Assembly: GCF_022848905.1 (NCBI RefSeq)
Contig: NZ_JAFIRA010000014.1
Coordinates: 1 to 64,000 of the forward strand
Origin: Thermostichus vulcanus str. 'Rupite'
GTDB lineage: Bacteria > Cyanobacteriota > Cyanobacteriia > Thermostichales > Thermostichaceae
DNA length: 64,000 nucleotides
Direction of reading: 5' to 3'
Shown here piece by piece: positions 19,810 through 25,415 of this stretch (within the stretch, counting starts at the first letter, position 1; the number at the start of each line of letters is the position of its first letter). The position numbers were made by a program, and so were the translations under genes. The notes below the pieces were generated by a model that was not told where the DNA came from, did not search any database, and saw only the letters and a list, made by a program, of their open reading frames with translations.

Positions 19810-22455
19810 ATGCCTTCTCTTGCTTCCACCCAGCTGGGTCCGATTGACCTGGATCAACTGCTCACCCCTGAGATTCAGCGCCCAGCTCGCTACTTGGGGA
19901 AAGAGTTTGGCGCCGCTCATCGACCGTGGGACTCGGCCCAAGTGCGCTGGGTACTGAGTTACCCAGAACTGTACGAGGTGGGGGCCTCCAACCTGGGCCA
20001 CCTTATCCTTTACAACATCCTCAACGCCCAATCGGATCAACTGTGTGACCGTGCTTATCTGCCGGGGCCGGATCTGAGTGCTCGCATGCGGCAGTTGGGG
20101 ATCCCGCTGTTTGCGGTAGAATCCCGCCGTCCCTTGCGGGAGTTTCACCTCATCGGTTTTAGCCTTGCCTACGAGCTGGGGGGAACCAACATTCTGGAGA
20201 TGCTGGATCTGGCCGGGATCCCGCTCCACTGGACAGAACGACAGTCCCTGAGGGTACAGGATTGCCCCTTGATTTTTGCGGGTGGGCCAACAGCCACTTC
20301 CAACCCAGAACCCTTTGCGGACTTTTTTGATTTCTTTGTCTTTGGGGATGGCGAAGAGGTGCTGCCGGAGATCGGCGCGGTTTTGGCCCAATCCCTAGAC
20401 AAGCCCCGCCAGGAGGTGTTGCTGGATCTGGCCCAGGTGCCAGGGGTGTATGTGCCGCAATTCTACTCCGGGATCCCGCCCAAGCCGATGGTGACCGGGG
20501 TACCCACCCGAATCCGGCGGCGGGTGGCTATGCCGCAACCGGAATACTCCGTCGGATTGGTGCCCTTTGTGGAAACCGTGCATGACCGACTGGTGATGGA
20601 GGTGCGGCGGGGTTGTACCCGTGGCTGCCGCTTTTGCCAACCGGGCATGCTCACCCGTCCAGCACGGGATGTGGATCCCGAACAACTGGTGGAGGCAGTG
20701 GTCCAAGGCTTACAAAAAACCGGCTACAACGAATTTTCCCTCTCTTCCCTCAGTTGCTCCGATTACCTGTCGCTGCCGGCGGTCGGGGCAGAACTGCACA
20801 ATCGCCTTCTCAACGAACACATCGCCCTTTCTCTGCCCAGCCAGCGGGTGGATCGCTTCGATACACAAATTGCCGCCATTATGAAGGGATCCCGGCGTTC
20901 CGGCCTCACCTTTGCTCCGGAAGCGGGTACCCAACGGTTGCGGGACATCATCAATAAGGGACTGACCGATGCCGATCTGATCCGGGGCATTCGCACCGCC
21001 GCCCAAGAGGGCTGGGACAAGATCAAGCTGTATTTTATGATCGGGCTGCCGGGGGAAACCGATGCGGACGTGATCGGGATTGCCCGCACCGTGCAGATGT
21101 TGCAACGGGAATGTGCCGCTGTTAGTCGTCAGCGGGTGAACTTTACCTTGACGATTTCCAACTTCACCCCCAAGCCCCATACCCCCTTCCAGTGGCATCG
21201 GGTGGACTACGCCGATATCCAGCGGAAACAGGCCCTGCTTAAACAGGAGCTGCGGCCGTTGCGGGGGGTGAAAGCCCACTTCACGGATATTCGCTTCAGC
21301 ATTCTGGAGGATCTAATTGGGAAAGGGGACCGCTCTCTGGGTCGGATGATCGAACGGGCTTGGCGATCCGGGGCTGGTATGGATGCCTGGTGGGAAAACA
21401 TTGATGCTGCCTATGCGGCCTGGGTGAGGGCCTATCGCGGGGAAGAAACGGCGGCAGCAGCAGAGCCTGACCTGCCCAATGCTCATCTGCCCATTCATGA
21501 GTTTGACCTAGAGGATCCTCTCCCCTGGGATCATGTGGATACCGGTATCGACAAAAAGTGGCTGCAAAAAGATTATCGGCGTGCCCTCGAGGCCATGACC
21601 GTCGAAGACTGTTCCTTTGAGGGCTGTTCCGCCTGTGGCATCTGTGGCCCTGGGTTTGGTCACAACATTGTCCTTCCCCCTGCCCCTATTCCGCCGCTGC
21701 AAAGCAAACCCACCCCCACCAACGATCCCCTCGAACCGGAACAGGCCGCCCAACGCTTTCGCATCACCTATGGCAAAACCGGGGATCTGCGCTGGTTGGG
21801 CCACCTAGACTTGATGCGTCTTTGGGAACGAGCCTGTCGGCGAGCGGGTTTGCCCTTAGCCTTCAGTGGGGGGTATCACCCAATGCCGCGCCTTTCCAAT
21901 GCCAATGCTCTGCCCATCGGACAGGTGGGATCCGGTGAAATTTTGGATGTGGAACTGCTGCCCCGCTACCTCTTTGGGGAACGATTGCCCTTTACCCCGG
22001 AGGAGCTGCAGGCTCGCCTCAGGGAACAACTGCCTGCCGAAATCCCCATCCAGGCCATCCGGGAGATCGACCGGCGGGATCCCTCTGCCACCGAGGCGGT
22101 TTATGCAGCAGAGTATCAACTCACCGTCCGGGCTGAAGGCGCGGACCCCGATTGGTCAGCCTGGGTGAATCGGATCCTAGATGCTTCAGAAATTTGGATT
22201 GAGAAACGCTCCAAATCCGGCAAACCCTACCCGCTCAACGCCCGGGCTCTGCTTTACCATCTGGAGTTTCAAGGCCAAGCCTCAGCGGGATCCGCCTGCC
22301 TTTTCTATCGGGGCAGTTGCCGCAATGATGGTGCCTACCTACGGCCTGCTCATCTGGTTCAAATGGCTCAACATTTGGGGTTACCGACCTGGGAGCTGGT
22401 GGCGGTGGAACGGTTGCGCTTACTACTCCAGGATCCGGAGTCGAGCTTGGGTTGA
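19810..22455 (+). CDS. Radical SAM protein, TIGR03960 family fused to DUF2344
   Basis: This 881-residue protein fuses two parts. The N-terminal part (to about residue 600) has a B12-binding-like start (VSYPELYEVGASNLGHLILYNILN-type features) and a radical SAM barrel with the cluster motif RGCTRGCRFCQPG (CX3CX2C), ending in a cysteine-rich stretch (CSFEGCSACGICG). The C-terminal part (about 640-870) starts RFRITYGKTGDLRWLGHLDLMRLWERA and is the DUF2344/TIGR03936 domain. Both parts are typical of this cyanobacterial/Firmicutes family, whose reaction is unknown; RNA modification or cofactor chemistry has been suggested for such domains. In many cyanobacteria it precedes rne, as here. I chose ATG 19810 over an upstream TTG. 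Confidence 0.88.
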   Translation: MPSLASTQLGPIDLDQLLTPEIQRPARYLGKEFGAAHRPWDSAQVRWVLSYPELYEVGASNLGHLILYNILNAQSDQLCDRAYLPGPDLSARMRQLGIPLFAVESRRPLREFHLIGFSLAYELGGTNILEMLDLAGIPLHWTERQSLRVQDCPLIFAGGPTATSNPEPFADFFDFFVFGDGEEVLPEIGAVLAQSLDKPRQEVLLDLAQVPGVYVPQFYSGIPPKPMVTGVPTRIRRRVAMPQPEYSVGLVPFVETVHDRLVMEVRRGCTRGCRFCQPGMLTRPARDVDPEQLVEAVVQGLQKTGYNEFSLSSLSCSDYLSLPAVGAELHNRLLNEHIALSLPSQRVDRFDTQIAAIMKGSRRSGLTFAPEAGTQRLRDIINKGLTDADLIRGIRTAAQEGWDKIKLYFMIGLPGETDADVIGIARTVQMLQRECAAVSRQRVNFTLTISNFTPKPHTPFQWHRVDYADIQRKQALLKQELRPLRGVKAHFTDIRFSILEDLIGKGDRSLGRMIERAWRSGAGMDAWWENIDAAYAAWVRAYRGEETAAAAEPDLPNAHLPIHEFDLEDPLPWDHVDTGIDKKWLQKDYRRALEAMTVEDCSFEGCSACGICGPGFGHNIVLPPAPIPPLQSKPTPTNDPLEPEQAAQRFRITYGKTGDLRWLGHLDLMRLWERACRRAGLPLAFSGGYHPMPRLSNANALPIGQVGSGEILDVELLPRYLFGERLPFTPEELQARLREQLPAEIPIQAIREIDRRDPSATEAVYAAEYQLTVRAEGADPDWSAWVNRILDASEIWIEKRSKSGKPYPLNARALLYHLEFQGQASAGSACLFYRGSCRNDGAYLRPAHLVQMAQHLGLPTWELVAVERLRLLLQDPESSLG

Positions 22456-22563
22456 GTCTGGCGTAAGGTTGGCTCGGCCAGTTCCCGACCCATTGGCACC
22501 TTCTTGCTATCCCTGCTGGCGTACCGACGAACGAGGCTATGGGCTTAGGGAGTCCACAAGCGC

Positions 22564-22569
22564 TATAAT
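22564..22569 (+). promoter_or_regulatory. Possible -10 element of an rne promoter
   Basis: An exact TATAAT occurs in CGCTATAATTTTG with a purine-containing start region about seven bases downstream. No good -35 hexamer lies 17 bp upstream, which is common for cyanobacterial promoters. If used, the rne leader would be about 600 nt and would include the hairpins at 22733-22777. Confidence 0.3.
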
Positions 22570-22732
22570 TTTGCCATTGCTGGCTCTTGCTGCTGTAAAA
22601 CTCGCTAGACCTCAACCTCGCCGGTGGCAGGGCGGGCAGCGAGTCAAACATTGGGCCGGATCCCGGAATGGAAACAGTCTTTGCTCAATGCCCAGAGGAC
22701 GCAAACACGCGCGATGTGGTGGATATGAGTAA

Positions 22733-22758
22733 AGGGGGCAACTCACCCCTGGTTTTTT
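22733..22758 (+). terminator. Terminator-like hairpin in the rne upstream region
   Basis: AGGGG and CCCCT pair around an 8-base loop and are followed after GG by six T residues. It may end the radical SAM transcript. The 3' arm and U-run can alternatively pair with downstream bases (CACCCCTGG with CCATCAGGGTG to 22778), which would dissolve the terminator. Confidence 0.4.
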
Positions 22759-23104
22759 CCATCAGGGTGCTTCTTCCCGGTTGCCTACTTCCTGCTATGT
22801 AACCTGTTGAGGTTGCACTTGGGGATTGGCAACAGAACAGAACCTTGGGCAAAGTTTGGGCTGGATCGGAGTCATGTTCAAGCCGGAATGTGAGCAGCCG
22901 TTCTCACCCTCCCAGGATGCTCGAGGGATTTCCTATCCTTGGCACATGGCCATCCCCGTTGATGCCCAGGCATCCAAACCGAAACAAGGCTTACGGGCCA
23001 GCCACGACAAAGCTTAGTTCAAGCATCAGTTCAAGAAATGGATAACCCCATGTTCATTAGGTTTTGGCTAGCGGATCCCCGGTGGATCCCGGTAAGGAGG
23101 TTTT

Positions 23105-23130
23105 TAGTGTCCTTCCGTAGTGTCCTTCCG
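23105..23130 (+). repeat. Perfect 13-bp tandem duplication in the rne leader
   Basis: TAGTGTCCTTCCG occurs twice in direct succession without mismatches. The first copy contains the GTG start of the leader ORF. The exact identity suggests a recent duplication or a selected binding element. Confidence 0.8.
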
Positions 23131-23181
23131 TATAGAGATGTCGCTGGCATTGTCTGCTCCTGGCGCAGGGAGGCCTGTTGA
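23107..23181 (+). CDS. Leader ORF coupled to rne (24 aa, putative)
   Basis: A GTG codon stands six bases after a perfect Shine-Dalgarno (AAGGAGG, 23094-23100), the strongest ribosome site I noticed in the window. It opens 24 codons that end in TGA, whose last base is the first base of the rne ATG (TGATG). The rne Shine-Dalgarno (GGGAGG) lies inside this ORF, so translating ribosomes would pass over it. The peptide begins SFRSVLPYRD and is not recognisable. The geometry fits a translationally coupled leader peptide that could adjust RNase E synthesis. It is too short to be certain of as a protein-coding gene. Confidence 0.5.
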   Translation: MSFRSVLPYRDVAGIVCSWRREAC

Positions 23182-25415
23182 TGCCTAGGCAGATCGTCAT
23201 TGCCGAGCAACATCGAGTTGCAGCCGTCTTCGCCGAAGATCAAGTGCAAGAGCTCATCGTCGCCAGTGGCGTTCACCAAGTAGGGGACGTTTACGTGGGG
23301 GTGATCGAGAACGTCCTGCCCAGCATCGATGCTGCTTTTGTCAATATCGGCCCTTCCGAGCGCAATGGTTTTATTCACGTCACCGACCTCGGCCCACTGC
23401 GCATCAAGCGGAGCCATGCTTCCATTACTGAGCTGGTGTTACCCCAGCAAAAAGTATTGGTTCAGGTGATGAAGGAGCCCACTGGCAACAAAGGGCCACG
23501 CCTTACCGGAGATCTGGCCTTTCCAGGGCGGTATTTGGTGCTGCGCCCCTACGGTAAGGGCGTTCATTTGTCCCGCCGCATTGAGGATCGAGAAGAACGC
23601 AACCGCCTAAAATCCCTGGCCATTCTGATCAAACCGCCGCAAATGGGTCTCCTGGTGCGCACTGAGGCAGAAGGGGTGTCTGAAGAGGCGATGATCGACG
23701 ACCTGGAGCAATTGAAAAAGCTCTGGGAAGATATTCAGCAGCAGTACCAGTCGGCGCGTGGGCCAGGACTACTCAACCGGGATGACGATTTTATTCAACG
23801 GGTTTTGCGGGATGTTTACTCCGAAGATGTGAACCGCATCGTCACGGATTCTCCGGCAGGAGCCAAGCGAGTCCGTGGCTATCTGCAAAGTTGGAACAAA
23901 GGTCAAATGCCTGCTGGGGTCTTTGTGGATGCCCACCGCGAACCCACCCATATCCTGGAATATTTCCGGGTGAATGCTGTCATTCGCCAAGCTTTGCGCC
24001 CGCGGGTGGATCTGCCTTCGGGTGGCTATATCATTATCGAGCCCACTGAAGCCCTGACGGTGATCGATGTCAACTCTGGCTCCTTCACCCAATCGGCCAC
24101 CTCTCGTGAGACGGTGCTGTGGACCAACTGTGAGGCTGCCACCGAAATTGCCCGCCAACTGAAATTGCGCAACATTGCCGGGGTAATCGTGGTGGATTTC
24201 ATCGATATGGATTCCCGCCGGGACCAGTTGCAGGTGTTGGAGCACTTTAATAAAGCGCTTTCCAGTGACAAAGCCCGCCCACAGGTGGCACAACTGTCGG
24301 AATTGGGGTTGGTGGAACTCACTCGCAAACGGCAAGGACAAAGTCTATACGAGATCTTCGGCCACTCCTGCCCCACTTGTGAGGGATTGGGGATCCTAGC
24401 GCGATTGCCGGGGGTTGAGCCTGGTCGCCTGCTCACGATCGAAAACGGTCTAACTGTGACCCTGCCCGATGATACGAGTGAGGGAGATGAAGACGGTTCG
24501 AGCCCAATCTTGCCCCGTGACAGCGATTCCCAGCGGGTGCGGTTGCGAGTGGGGAACGATGGGGTGCCACGTGCAGAGAGTCGTGTCCCGCTACGGCGAT
24601 CCCATTCTGGCCCAGGAAAACGACGGTACAGTCCCGCCGGTGGCCTGGATCCCTTTTCTCCCTTTGGTAGCCCAGTGGAGTTGGAGGAGGCTCGCTCAGA
24701 AGGTGGGCCAGGCTCTGGCCCACAAGGAGGACGTAAGCGTCAAGACTGGGGGGATCCCCGGCAGCGCAGTGGATCCCGGGGGATCGGTAGCGAAGGAGAT
24801 GCCCTCCCGGCTGCAGAAGCTTTTGCGGATGAGTTTCTGCCAGAAACGGCCAGCGAGCTTAGCTCTAGTCCACGAGCCGGCCAAAAACACAGAGATTCCC
24901 GTCGTCCTGGACGCGGAGAAGAGGGGGAAGGCTACAGCCCCCGTAAAGACTACATCTCGTCAACCCGAACGGAAGAAAGTCGGCCTGCTCCAGCCCGGCA
25001 AACCATCACCGTTGAGATGACGCCGTTGCAGCAACGGGTGTACTCAGAATTGGGCCTGTCACCGCTCTTGCTTCTCAAGCAGCCGCCGCCCCTGGGTCGA
25101 GATACGGTGGTTACAGTGGCCCTGCCGGGTAAGGCGCCAGCCTCAGTGAATACGACAGTAGATACGACAACAGCGTTAGAAGTCCGTGAATCGGCGCCTG
25201 TCGATACATCGGAACCTCAAGTGGATGTTGGGATTGAACCAGAAGCAGAACCACCGGTTCCCAGCCTTTCTCCTCCAGCAAACTTGGCTGAGCCAGAGGA
25301 TACTCCGCCGCAGTCAGGTGCCGAGCCACTGGCCCCGGAGCCGGAAGAACTGGCGGTGAACCCAGCCCAGCAATCTCCAGCAGCCTCAAGACGACGGCGC
25401 TCCCGCAGCAGTTAG
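23181..25415 (+). CDS. rne: Ribonuclease E/G
   Basis: RNase E is the main endonuclease of mRNA decay and rRNA processing. The catalytic half (to about residue 420) starts with an RNase H-like part, then the S1 domain (VGDVYVGVIENVLPSIDAAFVNIG and RNGFIHVTDL), the 5' sensor, and the DNase I-like region with the metal-binding aspartates (LTVIDVNSGSFT and VVDFIDMD). The Zn-link is in SCPTCEGLG. The C-terminal half is long, low-complexity and charged, and ends with arginines and serines (SRRRRSRSS), the tail that in cyanobacteria contacts PNPase. ATG 23181 has GGGAGG seven bases upstream and overlaps the leader ORF stop. The window shows no rnhB directly after it, unlike many relatives. Confidence 0.95.
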   Translation: MPRQIVIAEQHRVAAVFAEDQVQELIVASGVHQVGDVYVGVIENVLPSIDAAFVNIGPSERNGFIHVTDLGPLRIKRSHASITELVLPQQKVLVQVMKEPTGNKGPRLTGDLAFPGRYLVLRPYGKGVHLSRRIEDREERNRLKSLAILIKPPQMGLLVRTEAEGVSEEAMIDDLEQLKKLWEDIQQQYQSARGPGLLNRDDDFIQRVLRDVYSEDVNRIVTDSPAGAKRVRGYLQSWNKGQMPAGVFVDAHREPTHILEYFRVNAVIRQALRPRVDLPSGGYIIIEPTEALTVIDVNSGSFTQSATSRETVLWTNCEAATEIARQLKLRNIAGVIVVDFIDMDSRRDQLQVLEHFNKALSSDKARPQVAQLSELGLVELTRKRQGQSLYEIFGHSCPTCEGLGILARLPGVEPGRLLTIENGLTVTLPDDTSEGDEDGSSPILPRDSDSQRVRLRVGNDGVPRAESRVPLRRSHSGPGKRRYSPAGGLDPFSPFGSPVELEEARSEGGPGSGPQGGRKRQDWGDPRQRSGSRGIGSEGDALPAAEAFADEFLPETASELSSSPRAGQKHRDSRRPGRGEEGEGYSPRKDYISSTRTEESRPAPARQTITVEMTPLQQRVYSELGLSPLLLLKQPPPLGRDTVVTVALPGKAPASVNTTVDTTTALEVRESAPVDTSEPQVDVGIEPEAEPPVPSLSPPANLAEPEDTPPQSGAEPLAPEPEELAVNPAQQSPAASRRRRSRSS

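What the first reader, a model, noticed from the sequence alone, without database searches (positions are those of the whole stretch)
23094..23181. Translationally coupled leader ORF with a perfect ribosome site in front of rne
Seen: AAGGAGG, six-base spacer, GTG, 24 codons, then TGA overlapping the rne ATG (TGATG). A perfect 13-bp tandem duplication covers its start, and the rne Shine-Dalgarno lies inside it. Known: RNase E commonly autoregulates through its 5' leader, and cyanobacterial rne leaders are long. Inference: translation of this leader may set RNase E synthesis or mask a cleavage site. I know of no described leader peptide of this kind for cyanobacterial rne.
Basis: partly seen in the sequence, partly recalled or inferred. 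Interest (0 to 1): 0.7.

Follow-up and report, generated by a model that had tools for sequence, protein, structure and literature searches.

The report
Longer conserved leader ORF before rne

Summary
The letters are as described: AAGGAGG 23094-23100, GTG 23107, 24 codons, TGA 23179-23181 sharing its A with the rne ATG at 23181, and an exact 13-bp tandem repeat at 23105-23130. The reading needs correcting. Among six species of the genus, the ribosome site and the repeat occur only in the window's genome and lie in the fastest-changing part of the uORF. The conserved object is longer: an in-frame ORF from ATG 23038 (47 codons here, 42-44 elsewhere), open in 6/6. It ends TGATG or TAATG on the rne start in 5/6 and overlaps it by 8 nt in the sixth. 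Column permutation of the alignment gives all six open in 0.06-0.14% of trials. Peptide conservation is weak and confined to the N-terminus (MD[NS]xM..R.WL); the C-terminus changes frame, yet termination stays at the rne start. That favours coupling in cis over a peptide function. The ORF is absent from the two other family members examined, and coupled uORFs are no commoner than chance in 106 other cyanobacteria. No conserved hairpin was found. Most likely a genus-specific translationally coupled uORF inside a ~600-nt leader. Translation is not shown. Ordinary mechanism, new place; moderate interest.

The parts
22564..22569 (+). probable -10 box (TATAAT) of the rne promoter; start about 22576, leader about 605 nt
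   Evidence: context CACAAGCGCTATAAT conserved in 5 of 6 genus genomes at -574 to -702 from rne; GGCTATAAT / GGGCTATAAT in the two other family members at -450 and -306. Transcription start inferred, not mapped.
23038..23181 (+). conserved upstream ORF, 47 codons from ATG, MDNPMFIRFWLADPRWIPVRRFLVSFRSVLPYRDVAGIVCSWRREAC, stop TGA overlaps rne ATG
   Evidence: open in 6/6 genus genomes, stop at +1 in 5 and +8 in 1 relative to rne A(+1); all-six-open in 27/20000 and 12/20000 column permutations, other two frames open in 0/6
23094..23100 (+). AAGGAGG, possible internal ribosome site, this genome only
   Evidence: absent from the other five genomes; AAGGAGG-N4-9-RTG once in window, 2.5 expected
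   Evidence: not conserved as an SD-led start
23105..23130 (+). 13-bp tandem duplication TAGTGTCCTTCCG x2, this genome only; moves the uORF stop from +8 to +1
   Evidence: one-copy register ends at +8, as in the nearest relative G006
23168..23173 (+). Shine-Dalgarno GGGAGG of rne, inside the uORF
   Evidence: GGGAGG or GTGAGG with a 7-nt spacer in all six genus genomes
23181..25415 (+). rne (RNase E), start ATG 23181
   Evidence: first 15 residues (MPRQIVI[AD]EQHRVAA) alike in six genomes; matched in 289/292 genomes of the phylum

Best explanation
A genus-specific, translationally coupled upstream ORF in the long rne leader. Ribosomes start at ATG 23038 (without a clear Shine-Dalgarno), translate 42-47 codons and stop on or just past the rne start codon. 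There the conserved rne Shine-Dalgarno, which lies in the last codons of the uORF, recaptures the ribosome for rne (termination-reinitiation). The role is in cis: leader translation tunes the ribosome supply for rne and keeps the last ~140 nt of leader covered by ribosomes. The peptide itself is mostly not selected. In this genome a 13-bp duplication and a chance-level AAGGAGG may add an in-frame internal start (GTG 23107). Shown: conserved open frame, overlap and SD position. Inferred: translation, reinitiation, regulatory role.
For: Six of six genus genomes carry the ATG and open frame; stop position +1 in five (TGATG x2, TAATG x3) and +8 in one. All six open in only 27/20000 (single columns) or 12/20000 (pairs) permutations; frames 2 and 3 open in none. 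The 5' end of the uORF (23023-23082) is an island of between-clade identity (0.56-0.62) above the leader just upstream (0.20-0.35). The C-terminal frame differs between G006 and G007/G000, and the duplication in G000 shifts it again, yet the stop stays within 8 nt of the rne start. TGATG overlaps with an SD in the upstream ORF are an anatomy shown to couple by termination-reinitiation; that study also reports that cyanobacteria use SD rarely for de novo starts but amply at overlapping pairs (PMC6728339).
Against: No good Shine-Dalgarno before ATG 23038 (clade A none; clade B AAGG/GAGGG too close). Codon evidence is weak: pN/pS 0.53 over the first 19 codons against 0.99 and 0.62 in the other frames; permutation 101/4000 for similarity and 298/4000 for identity; G003 pairs near 1 over all 42 codons. 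rne has its own strong SD, as in cyanobacteria without a uORF, so coupling need not be required. No RNA or ribosome data. Only six species, about two independent clades.
Confidence: 0.5

Rival explanations
1. The leader is conserved as RNA (promoter-distal leader, RNase E entry site or binding site for a regulator); the open frame is not translated and its overlap with rne is incidental.
For: Synechocystis RNase E cuts its own leader at a U-rich site and about 96% of polymerases stop in the leader (PMC10989929); weak codon-level signal; nucleotide islands elsewhere in the leader are conserved without an ORF being known there (22541-22716); no SD for ATG 23038.
Against: Open frame in 6/6 with stop at the rne start against 0.06-0.14% of permutations; no conserved structure: folds of the region have z between -0.8 and +1.0, only 4 of 30 consensus pairs show a two-sided change, covariation term -2.0; no Rfam match.
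Confidence: 0.3
2. One reading: in this strain the 24-codon GTG ORF with AAGGAGG is the working leader ORF.
For: Ideal SD and spacing; the only AAGGAGG-N4-9-RTG in 64 kb; same frame and stop as the conserved uORF.
Against: SD and repeat in one genome of six; the match is at chance level for the window (1 found, 2.5 expected); 23103-23142 is the least conserved part of the uORF even within the near clade (0.38).
Confidence: 0.12
3. The uORF encodes a peptide with a function of its own (arrest peptide or trans-acting small protein) that regulates RNase E.
For: N-terminal pattern MD[NS]xM..R.WL shared by both clades; amino-acid similarity reached by only 101 of 4000 column permutations.
Against: C-terminal half, where arrest sequences act, is unrelated between clades and out of frame in G006; over all 42 codons pN/pS about 0.9-1.0 for G003 pairs.
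Confidence: 0.08

Closest known systems
Translational coupling by termination-reinitiation at ATGA/TGATG overlaps (PMC6728339)
   Same: TGATG/TAATG overlap; SD of the second gene inside the first ORF; cyanobacterial SD use fits
   Different: there the first ORF is a gene; here a 42-47-codon leader ORF in front of rne, with translation untested
iraD short upstream ORF coupled to iraD, controlled by CsrA (E. coli, PMC5574718; abstract only)
   Same: short leader ORF translationally coupled to a regulatory gene
   Different: no controller of the uORF is known here; another gene and phylum
Synechocystis 6803 rne 5' UTR autoregulation (PMC10989929)
   Same: very long rne leader in a cyanobacterium, with an RNase E-sensitive U-rich site and premature termination
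   Different: the terms uORF, leader peptide and upstream open reading do not occur in that paper; the U6 run here lies at about +180, far from the uORF
E. coli rne 5' UTR (Rfam rne5) autoregulation
   Same: rne leader acting in cis (general knowledge; cited in PMC10989929)
   Different: no Rfam match at E<=1 in 22300-23600

Membership tests
[quoted passage not shown]
   +1 overlap in 5/6 and +8 in 1/6 genomes
translationally coupled uORF | downstream ribosome site lies within the upstream ORF | tested here: met
   GGGAGG/GTGAGG with 7-nt spacer in all six
translationally coupled uORF | open frame kept by selection | tested here: met
   27/20000 and 12/20000 permutations; limited to one genus
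translationally coupled uORF | uORF is translated | not testable with these tools
   no ribosome profiling or peptide data; no SD at ATG 23038
translationally coupled uORF | downstream expression depends on uORF translation | not testable with these tools
   needs reporters
coupling through a hairpin that hides the downstream SD | conserved structure sequestering the rne SD | tested here: not met
   no conserved or unusually stable fold
arrest-peptide / amino-acid attenuator leader | conserved C-terminal residues or run of regulatory codons | tested here: not met
   C-terminus differs between clades and shifts frame in G006
E. coli-type rne leader element (Rfam rne5) | match to the covariance model | tested here: not met
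   no match at E<=1
Synechocystis-type rne leader autoregulation | long leader with U-rich RNase E site and premature termination | tested here: inconclusive
   conserved far-upstream -10 box and a terminator-like hairpin with U6 at 22733-22758, but the hairpin is no more stable than shuffles and U6 is in 3/6 genomes

The most novel reading that the evidence does not exclude
The uORF is a feedback sensor for RNase E: when RNase E is plentiful it cuts the long leader upstream of or within the uORF, removing the leader start, and rne loses the coupled ribosomes; when it is scarce or overloaded the intact leader delivers ribosomes to rne. Leader translation would then set RNase E level in this genus, in place of the U-box control described in Synechocystis.
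Probability: 0.12. Interest if true: 0.6.

Novelty: new member of a known kind. Interest (0 to 1): 0.38.

Why it matters
RNase E is essential in cyanobacteria, and how its level is set has been studied mainly in Synechocystis, through leader cleavage and premature termination. A genus-specific leader ORF joined to the rne start by an overlap would show that translation of the leader can be built into that control, and that a lineage has rewired it.

Tried and rejected
Conserved RNA structure around the rne start: no support. A CTCCTGGCGCAGGGAG hairpin hiding the SD was considered from the sequence of clade A; it is not the predicted fold and clade B lacks it. Rfam search of 22300-23600 with permissive threshold: nothing. 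A phylum-wide coupled uORF: 10 of 106 other cyanobacteria have an ATG ORF of at least 15 codons ending within -12..+13 of rne, against 14.4 expected in shuffles, so rejected. The sigma-70 scan found no two-hexamer promoter; the conserved -10 was found by comparison instead. The TIER-seq paper of Synechocystis (PMC8682795) is not held. A paper search on JA-2-3B'a / JA-3-3Ab gave none that looked like transcript starts or proteomics for these strains from title and abstract (papers not read through).

Full report
What is there. The gene at 23181 is rne: the start MPRQIVIAEQH is shared by relatives and the product is matched in 289 of 292 genomes of the phylum. The frame of the reported 24-codon GTG ORF is, however, open further upstream, to an ATG at 23038 (47 codons).

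Comparison within the genus. In a leader alignment AAGGAGG and the 13-bp repeat are present in the window's genome only. What all six share is ATGGA(T/C)A(A/G)CC(C/T)CATG at 23038 and an open frame from it to the rne start. The peptides are 42-47 residues. The stop shares one base with the rne ATG in five genomes (TGATG in G000 and G007; TAATG in G003, G004, G005) and ends at rne +8 in G006 (ATGCCTAG). The two other family members lack it: one shows no coupled ORF of 15 codons or more (L008/L039), the other has a 49-codon ORF without the MDxPM start ending 14 nt before rne, which is in the range expected by chance.

Is it chance? Permuting alignment columns between the conserved ATG and the rne start, keeping rows together, leaves all six genomes open in 27 of 20000 trials, or 12 of 20000 when columns are moved in pairs; the two other frames are open in none. 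This does not yet count the stop lying at the rne start. Shuffling single leaders gives a coupled ORF of 40 codons or more in 0.76 of six genomes on average, at most 4 in 2000 trials. Across 106 other cyanobacteria such ORFs are no commoner than in shuffles (10 against 14.4), so the feature belongs to this genus.

Peptide or coupling? Over the first 19 codons pN/pS is 0.53 (0.99 and 0.62 in the other frames), and the observed amino-acid similarity is reached by 101 of 4000 column permutations (identity: 298 of 4000). That is weak. Over all 42 codons of the G003-G005 group, pairs with G003 are near 1. The C-terminal half differs between clades and is read in another frame in G006. In the window's genome, reading with one copy of the 13-bp repeat gives the G006 register with the stop at +8; the second copy moves it to +1. 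The stop thus stays at the rne start while the peptide's end changes. With one such case this is suggestive only.

Structure. Folds of the region do not beat shuffles and the consensus fold has little covariation. I do not claim a hidden ribosome site.

Leader. A TATAAT in a conserved context lies at 22564-22569 in the window and in four more genus genomes, and a like box in both other family members, so transcription probably starts near 22576 and the leader is about 605 nt. G003 has a degenerate form of the context further away, with other sequence between. Long rne leaders have been mapped in several cyanobacteria; in Synechocystis RNase E cuts a six-U stretch in the leader and about 96% of polymerases stop before the coding region (PMC10989929). 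The terms for upstream ORFs do not occur in that paper.

Mechanism. The most likely reading is termination-reinitiation: ribosomes ending on TGATG are recaptured by the rne SD lying in the last codons of the uORF. Such overlaps were shown to couple genes in archaea and bacteria, and cyanobacteria are reported there to use SD rarely for de novo starts but amply at overlaps (PMC6728339). The uORF's own start lacks a good SD, which fits cyanobacterial habit but leaves its translation unproven. The AAGGAGG/GTG of this genome may be an added in-frame start; such a match is expected 2.5 times in a window of this size and composition.

Verdict. The corrected object, ATG 23038 to TGA 23181, is a plausible genus-specific coupled uORF: a known kind of device in a new place.

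Noticed in passing
L010-L117, 1-20 nt upstream of rne: The rne initiation region is strikingly uniform across 106 other cyanobacteria: TTTTTGAGGAAATTGA before the ATG, with GAGGAA in 90 and GAGGAAATTGA in 53. This seems more than a ribosome site needs and may be an RNase E or regulator target; the window's genus has lost it.
   Followed up: partly
22733-22758: Terminator-like hairpin AGGGGGCAACTCACCCCT followed by GGTTTTTTCC, about 180 nt after the probable rne transcription start; U6 also in G006 and, in another context, G003. It recalls the Synechocystis U-rich site and premature termination, but its fold is no more stable than shuffles.
   Followed up: partly
22657-22716 and 22766-22779: Conserved blocks in the rne leader between clades (AACTCAGTACCCAGGG-like block, identity about 0.67; GGTGCTTCTTYCCG), without Rfam match.
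   Followed up: no
L007 about 500-860: In G003 the rne promoter context (GGCGCTATGTTGTCTATTGCTGGC) lies roughly 940 nt upstream of rne, with unrelated sequence between it and the rest of the leader.
   Followed up: no
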